From Monosporascus cannonballus (Eukaryota > Ascomycota > Sordariomycetes > Xylariales), in contig QJNS01000066.1 of assembly GCA_004154925.1 (NCBI GenBank), positions 186,001 through 250,000 on the forward strand: a stretch of 64,000 nucleotides of DNA. Reading direction: 5' to 3'. The notes beneath the pieces were generated by a model. That model was given only the letters and a program-made list of their open reading frames with translations, was not told where the DNA came from and made no database searches. Shown here piece by piece: positions 6,051 to 58,505 of this stretch. A program made the translations under genes and the position numbers. Each line of letters opens with the position of its first letter. Positions within the stretch are counted from its first letter, which is position 1.

Positions 6051-7239
6051 GGTTTTTTTTTGTTAGTAAAAACGGATAACGATTCGCCTGGTAATTAAAA
6101 TGCCTATAACGCAAATAAAGGCCTTTTGTTTTATGGGCATTCCGTTCTTTTTAAATTATTTATCGTAAGTATTATTTGGGTGTTAAAAATAAAATTTAAA
6201 ATTTTATTTTTGCTGCTTTATTATCGAAATATTCGTTATACTTATATTGCTATCTGGGTTATTTTTTGCTTAATTATTACGGCTTAATTAAATGATTAAA
6301 AAATTATTTATTCCTTTTTATTATATTATTCTTTTAAGGCGTCCGGTAATTTCCATTATCCTATTTACTTATACATTATAATTTTTAAAAAGATTTATTA
6401 AAATTAAAATTTCAGTAAAATTTTTATTTAATGTTTTTTTAAAAACGTAAATATCGTTTCCCTTAGCCGGGTAATCCCTTTTACGTTTATTAACGCTTTT
6501 TCGAATAAGGGATAAAAAACGAAAGTTTTGCATTATTAATTTATGTTAAATTCCAAAAATGTTCGGTTATTTTTTATGCCGATTATTATTTTATTTGTAT
6601 AATACCTAAAAAAGATTAACAGGATTATAAATACCATTTAAACTTCCAATAATATATTAAATAATAACCGTACATTATATATTGGTTTCGAACCTTTTGT
6701 ATATAACGTGAAATTACTTACGAATTCCTTTTACGAAAATAATATTTATTTTGAATTTATAAATTATAAATACGTATTATTCGGGGAATCTTTTTTGGTC
6801 TCGTCGAACTTCTCCGGCCAAGGTAACGGCTTCCGCTTAGCTTTTATTATTAATTTGATTATTCGAACCGTTTTTACCAAATAACTTAATTACGTTTTCG
6901 ATTATTACTAGATCGAAAAGAATTAACGTTTATAAAGGTTATCACGTTCCGCATTTGCAATTAAATAATAAATTTTCATTAAATAATTAAACCATTTTTA
7001 ACTTATTCGGCCGGTTATTTTAATTCTTTATTTGCCTTATGTTACATTTTTATATATTTATGGAATTATGTTGCTTTTTTGGTTTTTTTTCAAATTAATA
7101 ATTTATACGTTATTTTATAGCCGTTATCGAACTTATTAAGGTTTCTATTATAACGCTAAATCCCTTCTATAACTTTGGGTCGATAAAGCCCTTTTATTAA
7201 ACTCTATAAAAAACGTTCGAAAATCTTAATATCTAATTC
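6051..7239 (-). pseudogene. gag of element L
   Basis: The position is upstream of pol on the minus strand. A short frame at about 6,790-6,900 reads FGKNGSNN followed by a block with QAEAV and VRRDQK, and the same block is in element E gag at 58,890-59,000 (FRRNGSND, QTEAV, IRRDKK). This shared block is the best evidence for coding. The frame is full of RIP stops and no clear zinc knuckle is visible. The exact start cannot be fixed. Confidence 0.5.
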
Positions 7240-7620
7240 TGTTACAACCCAAGCCAGCTGGGCCTGCGAAAACGGTCCAGCCAAGATCACAAAGCTACGC
7301 TAGCCCAAGGTCACGTGATCAGTGCTCAGCGGGTCTCAACTGAGCACGATTAAGCACGACTGAGAAGCACTGAGCAACCGCTTAGCAAGGCTCTGCTAAG
7401 CAGAGGTGAGCAGTAATAAAGGAATCTGGATATATACGCTCATTACTTCCATAATTTAAATAGCTTCAGCTTGCAATACAACATCGTTACCCAAGGCACC
7501 CTTGGAATTACGAGACGTGACATATTACTATATCTATTGCTCGGATTTCCACGATACTCCTGCCAACATAAACCCGTCGACTTCAGGTTTAATAGTTGGT
7601 TAAACCGCATAGCCGTCACA
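7240..7620 (+). mobile_element. Solo LTR of the chromovirus family, with 5-bp target duplication
   Basis: It starts TGTTACAACCC and ends TAGCCGTCACA and is flanked on both sides by AATTC (7,235-7,239 and 7,621-7,625). Its 3' two thirds align with the LTRs at 27,343 and 29,943. The centre (about 7,309-7,411) is a cluster of TGAGCAC/TGCTCAG-like repeats not seen in the other LTRs. A TATATACGC string near 7,430 may be the TATA region. It keeps many CpA and TpG steps, so it looks far less RIP-mutated than its surroundings. It interrupts the L leader between the primer-binding region (about 7,640-7,667) and gag. Confidence 0.88.
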
Positions 7621-7667
7621 AATTCCGAACATCTTTTACTTTATTAAATAATAAGCTAAAAAATATA

Positions 7668-7775
7668 TGAAAAGATTTACTTAAGCGGTTTGCAATTAAT
7701 TATTAATAAGAATTTATTTTCTAACTAAAGAGAAAAAAAAAGAGAAAATAAAAATACAATTATGTATATTCGCAT
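7668..7775 (-). repeat. 5' LTR of element L, inner part
   Basis: Starts TGAAAAGATTTACTTAAGCGG and matches 631-745 and the reverse complement of the E LTR. It stops at ATTCGCAT (7,768-7,775), where the sister LTR goes on with ATAAGGCGCTGCGC. The missing 79 bp lie at 18,745-18,823. The two parts total 187 bp against 188 bp for the 3' LTR. Confidence 0.75.
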
Positions 7776-7892
7776 TTGCTTTATCGTGATCAGGACCCCA
7801 TTTTGGAGGTTGTGGCTGCGCCTGCGGCGCAGCAACCGTAGCCACAGCTATAGCTTTCGATCAAGAAATATCTGTTAGGGGTCCAATGTATC
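7776..7892. repeat. Left end of X: GC-rich, hairpin-forming, RIP-spared
   Basis: Contains an inverted pair GGACCCC (7,793-7,799) / GGGGTCC (7,878-7,884), an outer stem TGTGGCT (7,811-7,817) / AGCCACA (7,840-7,846) and a perfect 8-bp stem GCTGCGCC / GGCGCAGC with a 3-nt loop (7,815-7,833). Composition changes abruptly at about 7,893 to AT-rich RIP sequence. It may be the terminal inverted-repeat region of X or a separate small foldback element. Confidence 0.6.
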
Positions 7893-10818
7893 AACTAAAC
7901 TCCTTTAAGAATAATATTTACAAAAATAATAAAACCTTTAAAATAAGGCCTAATAATAAGTTGTTATTTTTTCGTTTTATTTGGTACGTTCTTATATAAA
8001 TTTGCAAAAGTTATTAATATTAACTTTAGCAATAAATATTAGTTATAAATCTTTTAGTATTTTAACTTATATAATTTAACGCAAAATTAAAATTTTTATC
8101 TTTTAATATAATAATAATTTTAATTAATACGAAATAAAAATTATTACAATAAAAAAATAACCTAAAATCCCGATTAATACATATTACAACTTTTTATCTC
8201 CTTTAGGCCAATACGATAATAATATAATTTTAAAAGTTAAAATAATAATATATAAAGTTTAAAATCGCCCGTTTTAAACCGTAAAATATATTTTCTTTTT
8301 TATTAGCCAAACGAAAATAATATATTCGAAAATTTAAAATAAATATTTTAAATTTTCGAACACTTAATTTTCTAAAACGAAATATTTATTTTTATTTAAT
8401 ACCTTTATTAATTTTTTACCGATATAAACGTAATTAACTTATATGCCTACGTTATATGTATAGTCGATAACTTTATAAAAACCTTACGCCGTCGGTTTAT
8501 TCGCCTTATATTAAATATTATTTTTAATAAGTAAGGCCGTATTTTACAAAAAAAATAAATCGATATGATATATAATCTGGTTTTTAAGAAACTTAATATT
8601 TTTTTCGTTATTAAAATAAATTTCGGGAAATCCTTAATTATTTAAGCTTTTTTTAAATAATTAACTTCATTATTATTCAGGTTATATTATTAATAAAATT
8701 AATAAAAGCCTAACGAACTTTTATATTAATAATTCCATATTTTATTTTTATCCTAATATCCGCGGATACGAAAAAACTTAACTTAGAAATATTTAACCAT
8801 ATAACTGCCGGATAACATAACCATAATATTCTTAATCCTAAATAAATATCGAACGATTAATTCCAAACTGTTATATTAAAGTTTATTTTCGAACGATAAT
8901 ATAATTTAATTATTATTAACGAAATATATTTATTTTTTGAAATAAAAAGATTTCCGGCTTAAATATATTAATATCCGTAACTTATATTTTATTTTCCTTA
9001 TTTATATATATTAATTTACGTATATAATAATAATTAATAAGGTTACAAAAAGAAATTACAAAATAAAGCTGCTTTCGTTATATCGGCGGCCGAATTAAAT
9101 ATAGTTATAAAATGGAAATCCGGTTTTTTAATGTTAATTATTCCGAAATCGATATTATTATTTTTTTATACCTTAAAATTAATATGCGTATTACAAATGC
9201 TTAAATCTTTTAATAATTAATATATTCGGGCCATTAAATAATAATTTTTTAATTTAACTTAATAATTCGTTTTTATTATTAAAATTATTATTAATTAATA
9301 ATAAAACGAAAATTATAGATATCCGTATTATTTAATTAAAACTATAATATATTAAGGGTATTCGTTAAAGGTTATTAAAAAAAAGTATCAAATTTTATAA
9401 TTCCGAAATATTTTATAAGAACTAAATTTATATATATAATAACTTAAAACAATAAAATAATTTTATTTATATTATTATATTTATTATCGTTTTTAAATTA
9501 AATATAAATATTACGGATATTAATTAAATAATATATTAAGATAAACCGTAAAACGTTGCGATTAAGAATATATAATAATAATTTGATCGAATGGTTTATA
9601 ATTATAAGCAATTAATTATAATTAGCTATAAACAAATTATATTATTTATACTTTATTAAACGTTTGATATATATAAAACTGAATTATTTATTTTAAAAAA
9701 GGATAAAATAACGAAAACATTTTAAATTCCATAAATTAAATATTATATTGCATATAGAAATACAAAAGTTACAATAAAAAATAATGTAATAAACTTAAAT
9801 AATAATAAAAATAATACGGAATATATCGCAAATAATGTTAATTAAAACGAAATAATTACCCAATTTTAATTTTAATTTTCGGCCGGTTAAAATATTATTT
9901 TTAAATATCTGAAATAAAATAATTTTAATTTATAATACCGGATAAAAAAAAGCCTTAATAATACGCGTTATTTAATAGCAAATATGTAGGTTAAGCGGTT
10001 TTGATATTTTTGAAAAAAAGCGAAATTATTATATTAAAAAAAACTGTAATAACCTAATTCCGGTTGTAGTTTATTATAATATATATATGCTTAATTTCTT
10101 TTATATATCCGAACTTTTAATGGCGAAAATATTTACGTAAAAATAATTAAAAGTTAATTTAATAAAGGCGGTTATTTGGGAAATAATAAAATCTTAATAT
10201 AAATAACGGATAAACGAATTATTTTTTACGTAATCGTTTCGGTTTGGTAATAAAAGAATAAAATAGATATTTATTTTTATTAAATTTAAACATTTTTTAT
10301 ATAATAAGTTCTTAAATAAATTAAACGAAATTAAAAATTTATATTTAATTCAAAATATAATTAAATTAATTAAGGCCGTTTTCGGTTTCGATAAATAATA
10401 ATATTGACATATTTTAAAGAATTATTTATTTTTTAAGTTATATATAATATACGAGAAAGCTGCATTTTCGATTTTACAAAAAGCATAAGTAATTTTTTGT
10501 AAATGGCGGAATTCGTTTAATTGGAAATAATAGCGTTATATCTTTATGCCGTAAAAAGATTTATATAAATTACGAATTATTATTACGTTACATGTTCGAC
10601 AAATATCGGAAAAAATTATAAAGCCGCTTTAAATCGTGCTTTGACTTAATTACAATATGCCGTATATAATCGTTCGGTTTAAATTAGTAATTAACGGTTT
10701 AACGGTAATTTTAATAGTTTTAATATTAAACCGGCATATAATTTATACGTTTTCGTACTTTAAAATCGTAATTTCGGTTATAGCAACGTTTATATTTATA
10801 TGCGGAATTTATAAAGTA
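7893..10818. other. Interior of X, left part, no gene identified
   Basis: Very AT-rich, RIP-like. On the + strand around 10,390-10,700 one frame stays coherent if TAA is read as former CAA (contains NIGKNYKAALNRAL), but I do not recognise the protein. No RT, integrase or transposase signature was found. Confidence 0.35.
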
Positions 10819-11188
10819 TTAAGTAATTTTAATTAAAATTTTTTTATTTCCTTTATTTATAACGTCGGCGTAAAATTTATTATTATTAAATATTTTTAAC
10901 CTTTTATTTCCGTTTTCTTTATTATATTTATATTTGCATAATTTATTTATTTTTATATCGTTATTAAAATCGCCGGCGTTACCAAAACGTAATAATCCGC
11001 AGTTCGATATTATAAATAATATATCGGAAGAAAAAATCAAAATAATAAGTTTTGTCGAAATTAAGGAATTACGTATTAAAAATAAACGATATTTATGGGA
11101 TAATAATATTAATAATAAATTAAAAAATAATTGCGATATTAAATTAAAAAATAAAAAACGAAATTTTGCCGGTTTTAATAAAAGCTAA
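10819..11188. other. Overlapping short ORFs in X (73 aa minus, 84 aa plus)
   Basis: Two open frames overlap here on opposite strands: 10,819-11,040 minus and 10,934-11,188 plus. The minus frame (SNCGLLRFGNAGDF, many Asn/Lys) would become strongly acidic if RIP G-to-A changes at Asp/Glu codons were reversed. The plus frame is Asn/Lys-rich. Either may be a remnant exon of an X gene. Neither is recognised, and low GC makes chance frames possible. Confidence 0.25.
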
Positions 11189-11199
11189 TAATAAAAAAT

Positions 11200-12190
11200 G
11201 CGTTTAATTTCGGCGTAATATCGTAATTGTAAAGCGTAATAATTATAAATATTTATATAATATTAATTAAACTTATTAATATATTATTTATTTATTAAAT
11301 TCGTTATTTTTATTATTTTTTAATTTATTAAACCTTATGCAAAATATTAATTCGTTTTTATCTGGACTAATTATATGTTTTAATATGAATATAATAAATT
11401 TGTTTAATTAAAAAATTAACGGAACTTTTTATTATGCGATTTAAATTATAATATATTACTATTATTAGCAAATTATGTTTTTAATTTATAGCCTTGAATT
11501 TATAACGTCGAATTAAAATTTTCTAAATTTTATTTTTTAATTCTTTTTTAAATTTATTATATTAACTTTTAAAATGTTTTTTTTGAACTTTTAAGGTATT
11601 TTAATTTAAGTCGAATAATTAAGGTAAAAGATCGATTATAAGGATAAATAAATTATATGGATAATTTTTCGCCAATATTAAGGGAATTATTTTTTCATTA
11701 TTAATATAATTATCCCAATATTTGTTTTCTTTTAAATATTAATTCGAAATATTTAAAATCCCGGATTTGTAATAAAGTTTTATTAATTACGTTTAATAAT
11801 CTTATTTTTTTATAATTAACATTATTATTTATCGGCGTACGGTTTTAACTAATATTTTTCGAAGCCGTCCGTATATTTTGTTAGTATTTTGTTAAAACTT
11901 TTGATAATTATTTTTTTTTAAACTGGGGCTTTTTGGTTCCCTAATGAAAGTTAACGGCCGGATTTAGTTTTCTTCCCTTCGCCGCGTTTTCCTTTTGTCG
12001 GCGTAATTAAGACCCCGGCTGGTTCTAAGGATTTTTTTATTTTTTCCTCGACTGGTTTTAAAAATTCCTTGGTATTAAAATCTTACATAAATATAATAAT
12101 AATCGGATATTTTAGGTAACCGCCGAAATCCTTAATATTAATACCGAATATACCGCAATATTTAAAAATCTAATTTTTATATAATATTAT
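11200..12190 (-). pseudogene. Unidentified coding remnant in X, minus strand
   Basis: Between about 11,880 and 12,190 the minus strand holds a readable frame with few stops: a piece with DFGGYLKYP, then EFLKPVEEKIKKSLEP, then a basic stretch GKRGEGKKTKSGR. Local GC is higher than its surroundings. To the left it continues with more stops to about 11,300. A Cys-x-x-Phe segment (KYCGIFG) ahead of it could be a broken zinc-binding pair. I cannot name the protein. A DNA-binding or disordered region of an X-encoded protein is only a guess. Confidence 0.35.
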
Positions 12191-13860
12191 TTACTCGGCA
12201 ATTAATTACGTATAATTACGGATTTTCTTTTCGTTTAATATTATAAAAAAAACATCTATATAATATATACCATAAGATATATTACGGTTTTATATTTCTT
12301 TTAATCGGAACCACAAAATTACCATATTTTTAATATTATTTATATTATATAAATCGTTATAAATCATAAATTCCCGAAATTAAATAATGGCCCGAATTAT
12401 ACGATTTTTTAAAAAATATGCGCTGGTTAAATTTGTAATAACAAGAACGTTTATTTTACGATTTTAAAAAATTATTATCTAATAATTTATATTATTTATG
12501 TTAATAATTCTATTATTATATTTAAATATAAGGAAAAAAGCGAATAATATAATATATTATTTAATAACATTTTCGGAATTTAATAAAAATATTATTCAAA
12601 AATTATTAAAATATATAAATATATTTTTATTTACTTTTTATAAATTATATATATATATTTAAAATCCTAGAATATTTATTGAAATATTATTCCGAAATTA
12701 TCGTAAATAAAATATATATTAATATATATATAATAATAAAATTCGCTTTATAAAAAGCTTATAATATTAAAATTTTGTCGAATAATTATTTAACTTAAAA
12801 AAGACTTATTTTATAAATTAAGGCCGAATTTCCAAGAAAATAATATATATAGTAAAAAATACAATACGGAAAATAACGCCGTAATTAATATAATTCGTAT
12901 TAAAAATTAATTTAAACCCGTTACAATTTTTATATACGTTTTAATTTTTTATTAAATCGTTATATATTTCCCGGATATAATTACCGTATTTTATTTTATT
13001 TAATAACAATAATATTATTATAATAATTATATAATATTTAATATATATAAAACATAATTATAATTAAAAACTTAAATAATATTATAAGTTTACGGATATA
13101 AATTCCGCTTAATTAAAACCCAAAATATAAATAAAAAATATAAAATATAATACATAAAATAAAATTCATATATTAAATAATTACCGCATATATTATTAAC
13201 ATATATAAAAAATATATAAGAATTTATAGTATATAAATAAAATTTATAAACAATAAATACTAAATAAATTATAAAAATATTTTAAGGCAATATAAATAAT
13301 TAAAATTAAAATATATACAAATTTTAGGATTATATAATTACAAATACATAAATTATTAAATTTACATACATTATTAAATATAAATAAAAAAATAATATTA
13401 TTTTCTTATAACAAAATAATAACATATAAGGAAAAAACGTAATAATTATTTATAATTTATGTCAAATTTATATTCTGTTTTAAATTTCTTAATATAATTT
13501 ATAAAATTATTTCGATTAAATACATATTAAATATAATTATTAAAACTTTTTAATATATAATTCATATTATTTATTTCATCATAATTTCTTTTAATTGTAA
13601 ATATTTATTATATTTTGATATATGAAATTACGTCATTTCCAATATAATAATTATTAATTCATTATTTCTTTACTTAATATCTAAAATTTATATTATAATA
13701 TATATCTTTATATATTTTACGATATTATAAAAATAAATAAATTTCTTATCGATATAATAAATCTAATTTCTATTTTAATTTTTAATAATATATTCCCAAT
13801 AATCTTAAAAAACCTTATGCGCTTAATTAAAAATATTCAATTCGTTAATAATATTTTTAT
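12191..13860. other. Interior of X, middle, no gene identified
   Basis: About 1.7 kb of almost pure A/T sequence with scattered CpG, dominated by TAAT/ATAT runs. No frame, repeat unit or motif could be supported. Confidence 0.4.
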
Positions 13861-13871
13861 AAAATAATTTA

Positions 13872-16730
13872 TTTCCGAAAGAAATTCACACTTAAAAATA
13901 ATTTTAAAAACGGGTAATAAGATTTCGGACCAAAAAATAGCCGGAATAAGTACCAGAATAAAAATAATTTGCCTCCGAAAAATAACCTTAAAAATAGATA
14001 ATAAAATCCTTAACCAAAAAACAGTCGGAACAGGTATTAAAATAATTTGCAATAAGGCGAAACCGATAACGTAATCCAGGTTAAAATATTTTTGTATTAA
14101 CTAAATAATATTCGATTATCCTAAGATATAAAATATTCTTTACGGAAAATATATATTATACGTAATTAATTCCAAATAAAAAATATATATTATAAAGTTT
14201 TATTAATATAGCAAAAAAAAAATAAATGCTTTAAGTTTTAATATTAATACAAATATATATTAATTAAAACATTTTTATAATTATTAAAGATTTATAAATT
14301 CGATAATATTACGAAAAGCTTATATTACGAATAAGATTTTTTATTACGAAAAATACGGTATTTATATAAGTATTAAATATTAATAATATAATCCGGGATA
14401 TTTTCCGTAATAATAACCGGCAAAACAAAATTTACGTTATAGCGGATTATGCCGACTTTATAAATTATTAAATTATTAAGTTAATTACGAATTTATAAAT
14501 GATTACGGTTTTTGCAATTTAACGAAAAAATTATATAAACAGGATATTACATAAATAATACGAAAAAGAGTTTATAACTTTATAAACCAGATGATTTAAT
14601 TAAAAAATATATATTATATAATTATTTTATAAATATTATAATTTACGAAATTATATAGATAATAAATATGTAAATTATATATAAAAACGCAACAAAAAAT
14701 ATTTATATATAATCTTTAAATTTTCGATATTATTATATAATCCGAATAAAAGTTTTCAAAAGGATTTGAACGTAAATATTGCGTTTAAAACAAATAAGAT
14801 TTTAAGATCCGAAAACGTAAAAAGAATTATTAATATATAGGTTATAATAACGCGCGAAAAAAGATAAAACGGAAGGAAAAACTTTACAAAATATTTACAA
14901 ATATTAATTAATAAATTAATTAAAAATAAGGTATGCGGATTAACCCGAAATTAGGCGTTATATTTATTTATAAGTAATATAATATTTTTATACGATTTTA
15001 TAAAAAATAAAACATTTAAACGGGATATAATTTATTAAAATTACGTAAATTATAAATTTGATTATTTGTATTAATTTCGTTAATAATATTACCGTATATC
15101 GTATTATAAAATATTATTTTTTATTTACGATTTTACTATTAGAAATAAGCAAATTAAGTTAATATAATAATTAAATAATTACAGTAATATATAAATTAAT
15201 TTCGAAATTAATGAATTAAAATTAAACAAATAACAAAATTATATGAATATTAAAATTATAATATAAATATTATATTATTTGTATTTACATATATTAAAAA
15301 ATAATAAAAAGGTAAAAAATTATATTAACAGCTTATTTTCGTCTAATAAATCCTTATTTTGCTTATCCGATAATAATAATAACAATAAAAAACCGCCTTA
15401 ATTAAAATTATTAATTAAGTTATTGATAATTTATATTACAGGATTATAATTTTTTTCTATATACGGAATATTACGGTGATCTTAAACCAAATTGTTTTTA
15501 ACGAATTCAATATTAAAAGTTTTTCTGATAATTATATTAAGGCTATTTATAAGTTAATTTTCGTTTTTTGCCGTATTTAATTAATTAAGTTTACTTATAT
15601 CGTTAATAAGAGATACGATATTATTAAAATCGATAAACTTAATTTCTATAATTTTACGGCCCGTAACCAAAATATTTTCAAATTTTTAAATATTTTTTTG
15701 AATCCAAAATAAATATCGTTTAATAAGCCAAAAATTGCGAAATAAAAAATAGGTACGTTCGAGAATTTTATTTTAAAAGTTCCGAATAACGTAATGTTTA
15801 TTTTGCGAAAAAACATAACGGGCATAAAATATGCATAATAAAGATATACGGTACTTAATTAAAACCGAATTTTGGAAAAAAATATTAATATTATATATAT
15901 TATTTTTCGACCGGCGGAATTCGTTAATAAATTATAGATTATAATATTCGCCTTTTCGATTAAATAATTTTTAAATTTTCTTTTTAATATTTATTAAAAT
16001 CAAATTTAATACTAAATTGAATTTATAAACATTTAATTTGATGTTATAAAATATAATATATAATCGAAATAAAATATTTTTTGTTATAATTAAATTAACC
16101 GGCCCGATAAAAAATTATAATATCGGTATTAACTGTTTAATATAATTAATATTATTATATCTTGTAATATGCGAAAAATAAATTCAGGTTTGTTATAAGA
16201 AATAATAGTAATTTCGTAATTTTTTATCGATAAAAACGATATTAATTAATAATTAATTATTATTTTTAATAAAATTAAAAAAGTTATTACTTTATAAAAT
16301 ATTAGCCGTATTAAAAATATTTCCGGCTTTATAATTATCCGATAAAAAAACTTTATTCGGTAAATTTTAATTAATACCGTATTACTTAATATATAATATA
16401 AATAAATTATATTTTTAATTTAAAAAAATATATTCGAATTATTCGTTAAATTACTTATATTATGAAATAATATATTATTAATAAATAATAATAAAAAAGT
16501 TTCGTTAAAACGATTTTTATTAATTTATATGTTTTAATTCAGATTCCGTAATATTTTCCTTATTTATCCGGCGCGATTAAAATATTTAAAAATTATATTA
16601 TGCGCAATAAATTCAAATTCGGCAACAGTTAACCGAAAACAAATATATTTTATAAATTCGGTAAATTTGGTTTTCGAAAAAATTTTTTCGATCGATATAT
16701 TTCGGAAAGCTTTATGTATATTAAATGTTT
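13872..16730 (+). pseudogene. Large RIP-degraded ORF in X, unknown protein
   Basis: One + frame (codon starts divisible by 3) runs from about 13,872 to 15,480 with fewer stops than chance AT-rich sequence should give. Nearly all are TAA/TAG, which would restore to Gln. It opens with a Gln/Lys-rich stretch. It later shows IITREKR, KVCGLTR and a run of Asp-to-Asn-type codons before KKPP (about 15,372-15,398). From about 15,475 the coding-like frame shifts and continues (YGTQLKPNFGKKY, FSTGGIRQQIIDYN near 15,850-15,940) to roughly 16,700. That suggests about 900 codons with one or two frameshifts or an intron. I recognise no family. Confidence 0.35.
13898..14050 (+). repeat. 84-bp tandem repeat, about two units
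   Basis: The unit starting ATAATTTTAAAAACGGG at 13,898 recurs from 13,982 with mostly transition differences. The second copy ends at about 14,050. The period of 84 is 28 codons, so it is in frame with the large + ORF of X and would give a Gln-rich peptide repeat (TKKQPEQVPEQKQF and TKKQSEQVLKQF after reading stops as Gln). Confidence 0.6.
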
Positions 16731-18604
16731 TTATTATAAATAATTTGTATCGGATACGTAATTTTTACAAAAACAATGCAAATATGTAAATATTAAATAT
16801 GTAAAAAATAAAAGGTTTAAGAAAATAAAGTTTTGACGATTGTTAAAATAATTATATTATTTTATTTTTAAATTTATAATTTATTTTTAAAATTATTTAT
16901 ATTTTATGTATTCCGGTTATATTATCGGGCTAAGAAATATGTATAATTATAAGTAAAAAATTTATTTATATATAAAATCAAGTAGGAATAAAAAAATATT
17001 ATTTCTAATTATATAAATCGGTTATTTCGGTTTAATTAATCTATATTTGCCGAATATAATTAATTATTTTTTAATTTCTATAAATAAGATAAAAATGTTC
17101 CGAAATGCCATAAAATTATTTTTTTTAAATCCATATTTTTTTTTTAAAAAACTTTCGATAAACGTTATAAATACTGGTAATAATATTTTCGTTTTCCTTA
17201 ATTATATTTAACGAAATTAAACGGTATTTATTATACGGTATATATTATAATTTCGAAAAACCGGAAAATATTTAGTTATTACGTTTATAAAATATATTAT
17301 TAAAAACCTAAAATAAAATCCAAATAATATTAATTACAAATTAATAAAAAACATTCAAAAATATTAAATATTATTATAATATTTTAAAAAACCATTTTAT
17401 TTTATAATATTAATTAAATTAAAATATAAATTATTTTAATTTATTTTAAAAATATAAATATAATAATAAATAAAAATAATAATAATATTTTGCATAATGG
17501 TACAGTAATAAAAGGATATATTACGAACATAATTTTAAATATTAAAAATTTCGTATTAAAATATTATATCATTATATTATACCTAGTTTTAAAACGGAAT
17601 TTATTTTCATATAAATTATATTATTATAAAAAAAATTAATACGGTTATTTTTATTTTTTTATTAATTAAATTATATTTTTATTTAATGTATAACAATTTT
17701 CGTAAATATTTAACTTTTTTAATATATTAATATTATTCCGTAATAAATTCAAAAATTGTAAAAATTTACTTAATAAATAAAGTAAATAATTATTACTAAT
17801 ATTAAAAATTATATTAATTATAATAATTAGAATTATAAAAAAAATATAAAAATATCCGGATTGTTATTATTACGAAGCAGTTTCGTTTTCCGTATCGTAT
17901 TATACGATTAAATCTTTTTTTAAATTAATTAAAAATAAGCGTTTTTATAAGACGTTAACCCTTATCCAACACAGTATAAATTACGTTAATTTTGAATAAT
18001 AACTTTTTCGGCGGGCGGCGGAATTTAAGTTTTTTTTGCGAAAATTATGAATTATTTATATAATATATTATTATATTTATATATAACATGATTTTAATTA
18101 ATATAAATTAAAAACGTTTATTAATTTTCGTATGTTAATAACCGTTCATATATTCGTTTTTTTAACACGTTAATTAATCGGTTAATTTAAACTATTAAAT
18201 TTATAACTTGGCTTAAATCGTCGCATAAAATCTAATTACGAATAAAATTTTTAAACATTATGTTAATTCTTTTATGTTAATACCAAAAATTCAAAGTACG
18301 TATACATATATTTTGTTTTAAAGGCGTAACCCGGTAAAACTAAGAAAATTCGAATTTATCGTATTTTAAAAAAGGGGATAATAACGTAACGGATTCGGGT
18401 TATAGTTATTATACGTATTAAGGTTTAACAATGGCATATAAGTCCTAATTAAAATTATCGTAATATTAATAATAAGTTATAATTCAAGTAATTATTTATA
18501 TATATATATATATTTACAAAAATATATTATTATTAAGTTATTACGGATTTTTATTTTTTTAAAGAAACAAATATACTAAACGAAGTTGTTTTTACGCAAT
18601 TATA
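16731..18604. other. Interior of X, right part, no gene identified
   Basis: AT-rich, RIP-like, with an (AT)n tract at about 18,498-18,516. A purine run AAAAAAGGGGATAATAACG near 18,366 resembles an LTR-element polypurine tract, but no LTR follows that I can pair. Patches at 17,870-18,030 (CGGCGGGCGGCGGAA) keep more G+C. No family assignment. Confidence 0.35.
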
Positions 18605-18724
18605 ACTTAGGCCTCGCTGGCTCGTTACGGGGATTTGGGATTTGATTGGTTAATATTTAGCGTTATAAAGCGGTACTTGAGTGACTTTGAAGAAATTGGG
18701 AAAACGAGCCAGGGAGGCCTCAGC
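18605..18724. mobile_element. 120-bp MITE-like element with about 22-bp inverted repeats
   Basis: The left end holds AGGCCTCGCTGGCTCGTT (18,609-18,626). The right end holds the inverse of AGGCCTCCCTGGCTCGTT. Over 22 positions only three differ. TA dinucleotides flank it at 18,603-18,604 and 18,725-18,726, as expected for Tc1/mariner-type targets. There is no coding capacity and it is little mutated. Because it lies only 12 bp from the right end of X, it might instead be the right terminal structure of X. Confidence 0.6.
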
Positions 18725-18733
18725 TAGCTGAGG
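18718..18733. repeat. Perfect 16-bp palindrome CCTCAGCTAGCTGAGG
   Basis: It spans the right edge of the MITE-like element and the last bases of X, ending 3 bp before the X boundary. It could form a cruciform or be a protein-binding site at the X terminus, or be a by-product of MITE insertion next to a related sequence. Confidence 0.7.
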
Positions 18734-18744
18734 TAAATTCGCAT

Positions 18745-18823
18745 ATAAGGCGCTGCGCTAATGCTGCTTGGCACCGGCGTTTGTCCGGTGCTCCATAATA
18801 GGGCTCCATACAGCCCCATTACA
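18745..18823 (-). repeat. 5' LTR of element L, outer part
   Basis: Continues the LTR broken at 7,775. It is the least mutated copy: ATAAGGCGCTGCGC, then hairpin GCACCGG-CGTTTGT-CCGGTGC (18,771-18,791), a second inverted pair around AATAGGGCT/AGCCCCATT, ending in CATTACA at 18,823. On the minus strand the LTR therefore begins TGTAATGGGGC. Element A resumes at 18,824. Confidence 0.75.
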
Positions 18824-18877
18824 ATATCTTTCGATATATCCAAACGTTATTTTCGCAAATCCGAATAACAACATACT

Positions 18878-19390
18878 TTGGTTAATTTAATGAAACACGA
18901 AAAATGTAACATAATGCATTATTGTTTTTGTTTCGCCCAACAACTTAATTACGAAATAATTAACGGGATTTTTTGTTATAAAAAATATGTTCGTCGAGGC
19001 CGTTCGTACAATGGAATAAGAATTTTTGTTTTTATAATTAATCGTCATATTACGCAATTGAATAAGTTAACAGAAAAAAAAAAGTAACGACCGAAAAATC
19101 TTTATCCAAAACTTTTGCGTGTTTTTTTCGTATACGTCGTTAGCGTTAATATTATGAATCTTAAGGCGCGAAATTTATTACTCGTATTTTTCAATCCATA
19201 AATAAGTTTAATAATTTTGCATAATTAAAGTGAAAGTTTATAATTAAGGTACAGACGTTAAGTAAGGTAAACGTTATTAATTGGAATACGATGGATTAAG
19301 GGCTTCTTTCTTTAAATCTTACAAATTAGAATGCTATTATTTCGGATAGCTCCGTTATTGCTAGTAAAAGTTTTTTAACAGGCACTAGGC
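18878..19390 (+). pseudogene. Antisense accessory ORF of element A (Cys-rich, then charged helical part)
   Basis: The first 69 codons are open (18,878-19,087). They hold a cysteine-rich stretch (KCNIMHYCFCF, FCYKKYVRRGRSYNG) and then a Lys-rich tail. After a frameshift the homology continues with TEKSLSKTFACFFRIRR to about 19,200. The same protein is encoded at 26,745-27,180, and a relative is at 29,257-29,900, always on the strand opposite pol between chromodomain and 3' LTR. Function unknown. Zinc binding by the Cys part and a coiled coil at the C-terminus are inferences from composition. Confidence 0.55.
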
Positions 19391-22300
19391 GCCAATAAGA
19401 TTTTTGGCGGGTTCCCAGGTATTTTCGAAATTCGGGTAATTTTTCTATTTAATTATGTATTAGGTAAATCCGTTTTGTTTTCGTATATCGAGAACTTTTT
19501 TCATTTCGTATATTTATTCGTTTTTTATTTTTACGTCGTTTTATACCTTATATACTTTGATTATATTTATTATTAATTCGAATAAATACCGTAAAAAACT
19601 GGATATAATTTAACTTTTAATAAATGTTTTAATTAATAATTATTTTCTAGGATTTTGTTAAAGATTTTATGTAGACCAATATACATAAAATCGAGTTTTT
19701 TATTAGGGCGTTTTATTTCAATATTTTTAATAACGAGGAAAACCATTTTCCCTTTTTCGAAAATTAATTTTTTATCCTTTTCTGATTATAATACTTATTT
19801 ATTTAATTTAGTACGAATTTTAATTCCATTTTTATTTTTTGACATAATTATCGTAATTATTTTAACATAAAAATTACTTTGATATTAATTAACCGGTCGT
19901 TCCTTACGTTTTTATAAACTTTTAAAATAAAACCAATATTTGCGTTTACCGGTATTATTTTTATGTTTTCGTAATACCTGGTATTAGAAATTAATTATAT
20001 ACTCGGTAATTCTGTAAACTAACTGTTTTATTCGCAATTAATATAATATTGTAAGTATATTTTTAAGATTTAAGTTATCCGGTTTATTTATCTATCCGTT
20101 TAAGGTTTAAATACGTTAATTTATTTATAATTTATATTATTAGGATTTGTTACATTTTATATATAAATATCGATTTTTTATTTGAAATCAATTTTATTAA
20201 TAATCCGTAGAAATTAAAAATATATTTAAAGAAAATATATGCTATTTGTTTCGCGTTTATGTTCTCGTAATATGGTAAAAAATAAGAATATTTCGTAAAT
20301 CGATTCACGATTACGAAAATACTATCGTAATATATTTCCTTAATTAGATTTTCTGATATAAAAAGTGCAATAATGTAATTAAATATAATTAAATATTATG
20401 GTCGGTTTGCGATTAATAATAGCTATAATTTTCTGTATAGTTTTCGTCGTCGAATCTTTACTTTGGCGTAAATATCGTATTACCGTAAAACTTTCTATAT
20501 TATTAATTTTATTTTAGGAAAGAAATATATACCTTAAAGCCATTTTAAGGTCTTGTAAATTCCTGGATATCCGTATAATTAATATTCGTATATTGTTTGT
20601 ACTAAATCCTTTTGGTATTCGTTTAAAATTTTATTTTGTCCGTCTCTCGATTTCCTTAGAAATTATTATTATAATGCTGGATTTTCTGATATATATCGTA
20701 ATATATTACCCGAATTATCGCAATTTATTACAGACGTAAATATCCTTTTATAGTAATATCGAAAATTATATAACTAATTTTAAATAATTTCTTTTTGAAA
20801 TTTGGTTATTTATTCAAAGTATTTGTTTTATTATTCTTTTAGCCTTTTTGGTAAATAATAAAGAAATTAAAATTTCCTAAATTTTTTACAGAATTAAATT
20901 ATTATCCTATAAGCTTTTTGGTCGTAATAAATCGGGTAAGACTTTAATAATCCGTATACACCTTAATCTGGTACAAACTTCCCTTTAACAAATACTTAAA
21001 TTTTGGAAATGCCATAATAATAACCATAAATTCCTTATTTAAAATAACGTAATTGATTTGGGTTCCTTTTAATTTATACCAAAAAATTTAATAAGGTATA
21101 TTTTGCTTTAATTATTTTGTTATCAAATTATTATATTTAACATATAATTTAAAGTATTTACTTTGTATTCAACGGGGCGGTTTAAATCATATATAATTAA
21201 TACTGGCTCGTTAATAATCGTATCTTTAATATTTTAAAATGCTTTTTCCGTATCTGGCGTCTATTTAAATTCCTTTTTTTTCGTAAGGGTCGTTAAGGGT
21301 ATGTATATATTGGTAAAGTTTTAAATAAACTTTCTGTAATAGCTGGCAAATCCAAAGAATATCTGTATTTTTTGAGCTGTTATTAACGTTGGTTATTTTA
21401 TAATTATAACGATTTTTTTAGGGTTTATCCTAATATATTCTAGGGTAATAATATGTTCTAGATATTTTATTTCCTGTTTATAAAATTAATTTTCTTTTGC
21501 GTTAACGAATAACCTTATTTTATATAAAGCTTAAAAACCTTTATGAACGTATTTTATGTATACTTTTTCCGTTTCGGAAAAAGTAAGAATGTCGTCGGAA
21601 TCGTAAACGACGAAAATATCTAGGTATTTTCGTAATACATGGTTTATCATACGTTAGAAGATTGCTAATACGTTCGTAAATTTTATTGGTATTACTAAAT
21701 ACTTAAATAATCCGTATTTCGTTTTAAAAGCTATTTTTTATTCCTATTTTCTTTTAATCTTAATTACATTATATTCATTTTTGACATCGAATATTGTGAA
21801 TTATTCAGTTCCGTAACGTCTGTTTTTCTTTTCGTAATTAGGGGTAATATCGGTCGATTTTTGATAATAATATCGTTTAATTATCGATAATTAATTATAA
21901 ATCGCAATTTTTCGTTTTTGTTTAGTATAAAAAACATAAAATATCCTGTTAATAATTTAAAAGGTCGAATTCATCCTTTTTATACCTGATTTTTTAGTTA
22001 TTTTTTAAAAATGCGTACCTTATTTCCGTTAAAGTTGAAAAAGGGGTAAAATTTCGCTCAGGATCCTTTTCTAAGAATTATTTCGTAATCCCATTCGTTA
22101 TATTCTAATAACTTCGTATCGACCTTCTTTTTAAAAAGCTATTCGTATCAGTAATATTGTAATAATATATTAGTTAAATCTTTTAACTTTTAAGGTTATT
22201 ATTTTTATTATTTTAAATCCTTATTTAGTTACTTTAGTTTCGCTGTAATAATAATAATAATACATCGTATTTTTTTCTAATCCCGGTTTTTTCTTATATT

Positions 22301-22850
22301 TTGTCCTTATTGGTAATAACGTTGTTATCGTATCCTTATATTTGTATTTATCGCCATTATTAATCAAGTATTAAAGTTTTAATTTTTTTTCATTTATTAA
22401 TAAAAAGTAACATAAACTTTACCTAATTAATTTTACTGTTAATCAAAACTCTGTATTGGCATATCCATGGTAATCTTAAGATTATATCATAATTCTCGAA
22501 TAAAACGATATCGAAATTAATTGATTAATATCGTCCTTAAATAAAAATCATAAGGTAATTCATTTCGGGTATAATTTTTTATTATTATAAGCGAATTCCT
22601 AACTTTAGGCAGTTGTCGTTATATAAGGTTTTAACTTATATTTCTATAACAATCTAATCGTCATTTATTTACTACCCATATTATGAACTACCTATTAGGC
22701 TGTTTTTTCTGCCTTTTATTTCGTACTTTATAATTTTCCCTATTATGTTAATACCTTTACTTATCCGTACGAACAATTAGGCAAAAAATAATTTATAGCG
22801 ATTTACGTATTATAATATCGAATAATAATATGAAAAGAAAAACGCGGCAT
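19370..22850 (-). pseudogene. pol of element A (protease, RT, RNase H, integrase, chromodomain)
   Basis: Minus-strand frames show, from right to left: the protease-like segment (about 22,450-22,640, matching G at 49,985-50,170), RT with active-site box YDSDDIL at 21,580-21,604 preceded by FKTKYGLFKYL, the integrase region (about 19,600-20,850), and a C-terminal chromodomain at 19,370-19,560. The chromodomain makes this a chromovirus; in that group it is thought to steer integration to heterochromatin. RIP stops and frameshifts are frequent and no full-length frame remains. The catalytic Asp pair of RT is kept, but one aromatic beside it is changed. Confidence 0.75.
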
Positions 22851-22899
22851 AATAACTCTACGGGATATAACTTATTAATCTGAAAATTCTCTAACGATA

Positions 22900-24410
22900 A
22901 AAATAAAAGTATTACCGGAATCGTTAACTTTAAATTAAATTCCAGGAATTATTGTTTTATTATTAGAAAAGAAACTGGATTGCAAGATTTAAGAAGGGAA
23001 AAAAATAACGGAAAATACACACAAAAACGATTATATTTAGCAATTTAAAAAAACTCCGATTTTCGAATTAAATAATAATAACGGGTTGGATTACGAAAAC
23101 TTTCCGAAATAAAATTACAATAAGGTTTATTTTAAGGTATCGTTTTTTACTTTATAATATATAAGGATTTCCTAGATAAAATTAACGAATTTTCTTTATT
23201 AGTTTAAAAATTTACTTTACGTTATTAATGTTAGATTCTTTTACGAATATAACGAAAGGAATATACGTTAATATTTGGGTCGAGAATTTATGTGCTAAAA
23301 AATGGTTGAAATTCCTAATTTTGGGAAAAAAAATAACTGAATAACGTTGACGTAATAGAAATTCGAAATTTGGCTAGAAAAAAGGATCGGAAATAAAGGG
23401 ATTTGCAGCTTTATAATTAACGTTAAGTTAACGAACTTATAATAACGGCTCGGAAAAAAGTTTATAATTTTCTTCAACCGATACGAAATGGTAAAAGCCG
23501 AAAACCCCGACGACCTTTCTGAAAAGGTACGGATAATACGATTATTACTTAAGTTTACCGCTATATTATAAAGCGAAATTATTAAGAGAATTTTTCTAAA
23601 AATGAAAAAAAAATGTAATAACGAAAACGAAACGGGCAAAATTAATCCTTATTATTTTATACGAAATGAGTTCGATAAAAGAAACAGGAACAACGAAATT
23701 AGAGGGGTTATACCGGCGTATAATTAAATCTAAACCGGAAAGGTACCGGCGAATCGACGATTTATTAACTTTATTAACCTTATTATTATTATTAAAAAGA
23801 ATTAATCCAAAACTTATATAAAATTTTTTGAACGCCCGTAAAAGGTTTATAACGGCTCTATGGTATTATAATTACGGAACAAAATATATAAAATTTCATT
23901 ATTTCGAAATAAAGTATTTTTAATATGAAAAACCCGGATATAAAGGAAATTAAAATTTATAAAGCCGTATTTCTTTAACGATTGGGTTAAATAATATATT
24001 ATTCGGAATATAAAAGGTTTAAGTTATAAAATAAGGGGCTTTAGTTTTTCGGCCTAGATTCGAAATAATAATTAAGTTTCGACTTAGAAAAAAATAGATT
24101 AAGTATAGAGGTTTAATAAATGGCAGTAATAATTATAATCGATATACGAAAAAGGGTATTACCAGAATTAGTAATTCAAGATTTAATAAATAATATAACG
24201 ATAAGGGGCGTTTTTGCAAAAAGGGCCTTATTGAGAAAAATAAGTACGTTAATAAAGGTGATAAAGGACTAAGCGAGAATACGGAAAGTATGAGGTAATT
24301 CCCACGTTCTGAAGGATTTCTAAGGGTACGACGTAATCTTAGGCCTGCCCTGGGGAAGTGCTACCGACCCAAACTTGGATTTCAAAAAGAAATTATGGTA
24401 CTTTAGATTA
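22900..24410 (+). pseudogene. Putative gag/spacer of element K
   Basis: A + frame around 23,470-23,690 is readable (YEMVKAENPDDLSEKVRII, later NPYYFIRNEFDKRNRNN) and precedes pol in the same orientation, so gag is the natural reading. I see no CCHC knuckle. A longer open frame exists on the minus strand at 23,295-23,639, but its composition suggests a shadow. The stretch 24,260-24,400 is GC-richer and may hold the gag-pol junction. Confidence 0.35.
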
Positions 24411-58321: not shown

Positions 58322-58505
58322 TATAATAGGGCTATATGGAGCCCTATTATAGAGCACCGGACAAACGCCGGTACCAAGCAGCACTAGCGCACCGCCTTAT
58401 ATGCGAACATATATAACTCTATTTTTATTTCCTTTTTTTTCTTTTTAGCTAGAAAATAAATTCTTATTAGTATCTGATTATAAACCGCTTAGGTAAAGCT
58501 TTTTA
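58322..58505 (+). repeat. 5' LTR of element E (184 bp)
   Basis: Starts TATAATAGGGC (TGTAATGGGGC in the best L copy) and ends AAAGCTTTTTA. Contains CACCGGACAAACGCCGGT (hairpin) and GTTCGCATATAAGG read in reverse. The following TATATTTTTTAGCTTATTAT is shared with L (7,645-7,667 in reverse) and should hold the primer-binding region. Confidence 0.75.

What the first reader, a model, noticed from the sequence alone, without database searches (positions are those of the whole stretch)
7768..18744. 10.96-kb unclassified insertion with an exact 8-bp target duplication inside a 188-bp LTR
Seen: the L 5' LTR breaks at ATTCGCAT (7,768-7,775) and its missing 79 bp start right after a second ATTCGCAT (18,737-18,744). 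The sister LTR at 631-818 and the E LTR show the unbroken site. The neighbouring bases differ, so the duplication is exactly 8 bp. Known: 8-bp duplications fit hAT, P, Merlin or KDZ-type DNA transposons, not gypsy elements (usually 5 bp). Inferred: X is a large cut-and-paste element, or a composite, with structured ends and no recognised transposase. It is the best candidate here for something undescribed.
Basis: partly seen in the sequence, partly recalled or inferred. Interest (0 to 1): 0.78.

Follow-up and report, generated by a model that had tools for sequence, protein, structure and literature searches.

The report
RIP-decayed helicase-bearing fungal DNA transposon
The 11-kb insert is one worn-out copy of what looks like a fungal jumping gene, whose ends occur hundreds of times in this genome and which once carried a likely transposase and a DNA-unwinding enzyme; it is close to a known group but leaves a slightly different footprint when it inserts.

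Summary
In detail: window 7776-18736 is an insertion flanked by an exact 8-bp duplication (ATTCGCAT). It is one element, not a pile-up. Of 14 insertions of its family with both borders read, 11 have perfect, all-different 8-bp duplications, two are near-perfect, one has none. The genome holds 463 right-end and 296 left-end matches. Full copies are colinear (10.7-11.1 kb) with short imperfect inverted repeats. X looks gene-less because RIP-type mutation has driven it to 18% GC.

Less decayed copies carry a DUF6589 gene on the minus strand (seen in raw DNA of several copies) and a RecQ-type helicase gene on the plus strand (weak in raw DNA, clearer after combining copies). Fungal DUF6589 proteins keep candidate D/D/E residues; two predicted models match P-element and Hermes transposases best, though weakly.

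Closest known group: AcademH. But AcademH is reported to make 9-10 bp duplications and X's family makes exactly 8, and no Academ transposase was available for comparison. Verdict: a new variant of a known kind. Main value: DUF6589 becomes a likely transposase.

The parts
7768..7775 (.). left copy of 8-bp target-site duplication ATTCGCAT
18737..18744 (.). right copy of 8-bp target-site duplication ATTCGCAT
7776..18736 (+). whole element X (10,961 bp), RIP-mutated copy of a family whose ends match hundreds of times; 'left' and 'right' follow the + strand
7776..7794 (+). left terminal inverted repeat, degenerate in X (11 of 19 against its right end; 16 of 19 in copy C13; counted by eye from the printed ends)
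18718..18736 (-). right terminal inverted repeat
7811..7846 (+). subterminal hairpin of the left end (18-nt arms, 78% complementary)
18603..18726 (.). subterminal inverted repeat of the right end: arms 18603-18626 and 18703-18726, 88% complementary
8678..9659 (+). remnant of a RecQ-type SF2 helicase gene (coordinates mapped from copy C13; no Pfam match in X itself)
15316..17869 (-). remnant of the DUF6589 (proposed transposase) gene, mapped from C13; the Pfam match in C13 corresponds to 16036-17340
17870..18317 (-). coding-like stretch just upstream of the DUF6589 frame, possible first exon (weak, no family match)
11877..12773 (-). coding-like stretch, no family match
13739..14247 (+). coding-like stretch with an internal repeat, no family match
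7681..7775 (.). first part of the host LTR split by X (includes the left TSD copy)
18745..18823 (.). remaining part of the same LTR

Best explanation
X is one RIP-inactivated copy of a high-copy cut-and-paste DNA transposon of about 11 kb in what is inferred to be a fungus. SHOWN: shared ends, colinear full copies, 8-bp duplications, RIP-type decay, a DUF6589 gene remnant read from the right end on the minus strand, a RecQ-type helicase remnant read from the left end on the plus strand, and internally deleted copies flanked by their own 8-bp duplications. INFERRED: the DUF6589 protein is an RNase H-fold D/D/E transposase with a helical insertion, in the manner of P-element and hAT transposases. 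It binds the two ends, excises the element and joins it to target strands staggered by 8 bp; host filling of the gaps makes the duplication. The helicase is assumed to help open or process ends or the excision gap. Deleted copies were moved in trans. The nearest described group is AcademH; X is AcademH-like with an 8-bp instead of a 9-10 bp duplication.
Confidence: 0.85

Rival explanations
1. (Splits the identity question inside the best explanation.) It is a true AcademH element, and 8-bp duplications belong to the normal range of that lineage.
For: RecQ-type helicase plus likely transposase on one cut-and-paste element; fungal Academ copies carry recQ_fam domains.
Against: Reported duplications are 9 or 10 bp, here exactly 8 in 11 of 14. 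No Academ transposase sequence was held, so homology of DUF6589 to it was not tested.
Confidence: 0.55
2. (Splits the identity question.) It is a separate superfamily defined by the DUF6589 transposase, related by fold to hAT and P elements, which acquired a RecQ helicase on its own.
For: 8-bp duplications as in hAT and Zisupton and, from general knowledge, P; weak best fold matches to P element and Hermes; Pfam gives only DUF6589 for the readout protein.
Against: RecQ helicases are a stated mark of fungal Academ and of KolobokH, so independent capture is the costlier assumption; fold scores are low.
Confidence: 0.25
3. KolobokH: Kolobok transposon with RecQ helicase, reported only from fungi.
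For: RecQ-type helicase.
Against: Kolobok duplicates TTAA (recalled, from no call); duplications here are 8 bp and vary. The helicase of KolobokH lies downstream of the transposase, here on the other strand at the other end.
Confidence: 0.04
4. A KDZ (Zisupton or Dileera) or ordinary hAT element.
For: Zisupton and a Dileera family make 8-bp duplications; hAT usually 8.
Against: Pfam scan at E up to 1 of the transposase readout returns only DUF6589; in the passages seen the accessory gene of KDZ is TET/JBP.
Confidence: 0.07
5. Several unrelated insertions meeting by chance in the LTR.
For: None found.
Against: Seven full-length copies are colinear with the same ends.
Confidence: 0.01

Closest known systems
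AcademH (Academ superfamily lineage with helicase; Kojima 2020, known here only through passages of PMC10045372 and PMC10799480; the paper itself is not held and was not read)
   Same: Fungal DNA transposon carrying a helicase besides a transposase; fungal Academ copies carry recQ_fam domains (X family).
   Different: 8-bp instead of 9 or 10 bp duplications; hundreds of end matches instead of low copy; transposase homology untested.
KolobokH (passage of PMC9587614)
   Same: RecQ helicase, fungi only.
   Different: Duplication length (TTAA is recalled) and gene arrangement differ.
hAT and P-element transposons (Hermes, Drosophila P)
   Same: 8-bp duplications (P from general knowledge); weak fold matches, model residues about 211-707.
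   Different: No sequence match to their Pfam families; they carry no helicase (general knowledge).
Zisupton / Dileera (KDZ; passages of PMC12730594)
   Same: 8-bp duplications in fungi.
   Different: No KDZ domain match; the accessory gene there is TET/JBP, here a helicase.
Telomere-associated RecQ repeats such as S. nodorum X26 (passages of PMC3017866)
   Same: RIP-decayed fungal repeat in which RecQ helicase similarity is stronger after correcting for RIP.
   Different: X26 is sub-telomeric and is not given as a transposon with ends and duplications in the passages seen.

Membership tests
AcademH | encodes a RecQ-type helicase | tested here: met
   Helicase_C 4e-7 and recQ_fam 4e-9, the latter below its curated cut-off, both on the readout; only 0.0067 in raw copy C13
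AcademH | 9 or 10 bp target-site duplication (PMC10045372) | tested here: not met
   11 of 14 insertions have exactly 8 bp, none 9 or 10
AcademH | Academ-type D/D/E transposase | not testable with these tools
   No Academ transposase sequence or profile held; only DUF6589 shown
Cut-and-paste DNA transposon | terminal inverted repeats and fixed-length target-site duplication | tested here: met
   16/19 TIR in C13; 8 bp in 11 of 14
Cut-and-paste DNA transposon | D/D/E transposase | tested here: inconclusive
KolobokH | TTAA duplication (recalled) | tested here: not met
KDZ (Zisupton, Dileera) | 8-bp duplication | tested here: met
KDZ (Zisupton, Dileera) | KDZ transposase domain | tested here: inconclusive
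   Pfam scan of the DUF6589 readout at E up to 1 returns DUF6589 only; decay may hide others
hAT | hAT transposase or dimerisation domain | tested here: inconclusive
P element | P-type transposase | tested here: inconclusive
Starship | DUF3435-type tyrosine recombinase near one end (recalled) | tested here: inconclusive
   not among Pfam matches of X or of C13 frames; decay may hide it

The most novel reading that the evidence does not exclude
DUF6589, a fungal domain without assigned function, is the transposase of its own superfamily of DNA transposons: P/hAT-like fold, 8-bp duplications, TTACCT termini, an on-board RecQ helicase at the opposite end, distinct from Academ and Kolobok.
Probability: 0.25. 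Interest if true: 0.6.

Novelty: new variant of a known kind. Interest (0 to 1): 0.42.

Why it matters
It ties an uncharacterised Pfam domain (DUF6589) to a defined mobile element with ends, duplications and a helicase, which makes its function testable. None of the 5.39 million papers held contains the word DUF6589; other literature was not searched. It also shows how RIP can hide a high-copy transposon so completely that a single copy looks gene-less, and how comparing copies recovers the genes. If the 8-bp duplication holds in intact relatives, it bears on the published suggestion that the accessory enzyme, helicase or nuclease, is linked to duplication length in Academ.

Tried and rejected
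Rfam on 7000-20000: no match. Stop-to-stop ORFs of X: longest 121 aa. Counting only stops that no copy could escape gave at most 191 aa, inconclusive because CpA sites are saturated. Six-frame Pfam read-through of X: zero families, while the same test on six frames of 18824-23800 found chromodomain, RNase H and integrase traces on the minus strand, so the test can work on decayed DNA. Search for an un-RIPed copy with a 263-base readout piece: best of 40 scored (209 candidates) is 88%. Protein search with the DUF6589 readout: no hit among 7,998 candidates; a less decayed relic (C275) then led to four proteins and these to 43. Readout of other coding-like stretches: no Pfam match for 5 of 5 pieces. 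PDB sequence search with the DUF6589 readout: none. Matches to Consortin_N (0.002) and Intein_splicing (0.042) were judged chance, a judgement not tested. The signature C/DxxH between second D and last E, given for hAT, P, Kolobok, MuDR and Dada, was looked for in P0003 only and is absent between those residues. Families absent from the fold lists are not excluded by that. Kojima 2020 (AcademH) and a 2017 fungal cut-and-paste survey (DOI recalled) are not held.

Papers: passages only were seen of PMC10799480, PMC10045372, PMC12730594 (also outline and abstract), PMC9587614, PMC3017866, PMC4522978, PMC8290104 and PMC6416283; of PMC12210899 and PMC9970103 only a reference-list passage; all others as search listings.

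Full report
WHAT WAS CHECKED. The window belongs to contig C578 of an unnamed 88.8-Mb genome in 618 contigs. That it is a fungus is inferred from RIP-type decay and from the fungal names on DUF6589 relatives. The 8-mer ATTCGCAT flanks 7776-18736 exactly, and the split LTR rejoins to match its sister near 631-818. The LTR belongs to an element whose protein traces read on the minus strand, so the split LTR is its 3' LTR.

ONE FAMILY, NOT A PILE-UP. Both ends have many relatives (40 candidates scored in each). End patterns match 463 times (right, 23-mer) and 296 times (left, 30-mer) with up to 2 mismatches, against 0 for the same patterns read backwards. Seven copies, X included, align colinearly over 10.7-11.1 kb at 82-86% identity, apart from small indels.

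TARGET DUPLICATIONS. Fourteen insertions had both borders read: 11 exact 8-bp repeats with different sequences, C4 7/8, C10 6/8, C605 none (C455 and C322 by eye). No exact repeat extends beyond 8. Four of the 14 are short derivatives lacking about 8.1-8.6 kb of interior (C4, C10, C455, C322), two of them with exact duplications; this is the pattern of non-autonomous copies moved in trans.

TERMINI. In copy C13 the ends are TTACCTCATCTTGATCAGG and, in reverse complement, TTACCTCAGCTAGCTCAGG, 16/19 identical; in X 11/19 (counted by eye). The left third base is A in some copies and G in others, X among them. The left end has a subterminal hairpin, the right an interrupted 24-bp inverted repeat.

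WHY IT LOOKED GENE-LESS. 78-93% of differences between seven copies are transitions. (CpA+TpG)/(ApC+GpT) is about 0.3-0.7 inside and 1.22 and 0.79 in the two end windows; mean GC is 0.08-0.29 inside and 0.34 and 0.37 at the ends. This is the mark of RIP. In X no protein family is detectable in six read-through frames, although the same test sees the neighbouring LTR element's domains.

GENES. (1) DUF6589, minus strand, right part. One of the 14, C275, is a GC 0.51 relic without a blastn match to X or C13. Raw C13 frames: E 2.3e-26. A profile built from 43 DUF6589-type proteins matches minus-strand frames (stops as X) of six of ten copies at E <= 1.3e-5 in a set of 66 frames: C13 76.1 bits, the other five 15.5-20.7 bits; the remaining four are C68 0.0096, C31 0.03, C50 0.083, X 0.42; the best plus-strand frame is at 3.9. 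Combining copies by a RIP-aware column readout gives E 2.5e-38 over positions 24-366 of 410. (2) RecQ-type helicase, plus strand, left part: Helicase_C 4e-7, recQ_fam 4e-9 though below its cut-off, best solved relative 1oyw at 4.8e-5 in a list that is mostly RecQ, Q1, Q4 and Bloom helicases; raw C13 gives only 0.0067, and there a presumably chance family (Consortin_N, 0.002) scores better. The readout takes C or G wherever any copy has it, so it over-corrects; the raw DUF6589 results do not depend on it, the helicase identification largely does. (3) Two further coding-like stretches have no family match.

PLACEMENT. Passages seen: AcademH makes 9 or 10 bp duplications (PMC10045372); 81% of fungal Academ copies contain recognizable domains, for example DEAD/DEAH helicase and recQ_fam (PMC6416283); AcademH is low-copy in fungi (PMC10799480); KolobokH has a RecQ helicase downstream of its transposase (PMC9587614); Zisupton and a Dileera family make 8-bp duplications (PMC12730594). 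X's family works like AcademH but fails its stated duplication length, and the transposase comparison could not be made. I therefore call it an AcademH-like variant and do not file it as AcademH.

MECHANISM. Shown: ends, duplications, gene remnants, deleted derivatives, RIP-type decay. Inferred: DUF6589 protein pairs the ends, excises and inserts with an 8-bp stagger; the helicase assists strand opening or repair; amplification came before or alongside RIP. No copy close to the pre-RIP state was found (best of 40 scored is 88% to a readout piece).

Noticed in passing
C275:24148-24525 (L059): A DUF6589 relic in un-RIPed, GC 0.51 DNA without a blastn match to X or C13; its best database relative is a Fusarium solani protein (P0001, 90% identity over 46% of the query piece).
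   Followed up: partly
window 7681-18823; C596, C588 and C50 copies: Of 14 insertions read, X and C596 sit in LTR sequence of the same kind (C596 by eye), C588 sits inside the left end of another copy of its own family, and C50 inside an inverted right end of the family.
   Followed up: partly
L014, L033, L034, L063, L064: Internal deletion derivatives with several different right breakpoints have left breakpoints clustered at about 1,550-1,640 from the left end.
   Followed up: no
pair list: Five of 35 end pairs are 17.6-18.3 kb apart; C573 and C605 are also 17.5 and 18.3 kb, with about 7 kb of extra DNA at different places: probably nested insertions.
   Followed up: partly
terminal ~150 bp of the family: Ends keep GC 0.30-0.59 and 94-98% major-allele frequency while the interior is RIP-saturated. 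Could be a boundary effect of RIP or bias from finding copies by their ends.
   Followed up: partly
window 18824-23800: Gypsy-type element with chromodomain, RNase H and integrase traces on the minus strand, also decayed (the class name is my reading of those domains).
   Followed up: no
window 58324-58491: Another copy of the same LTR, minus orientation, 87% identical.
   Followed up: no
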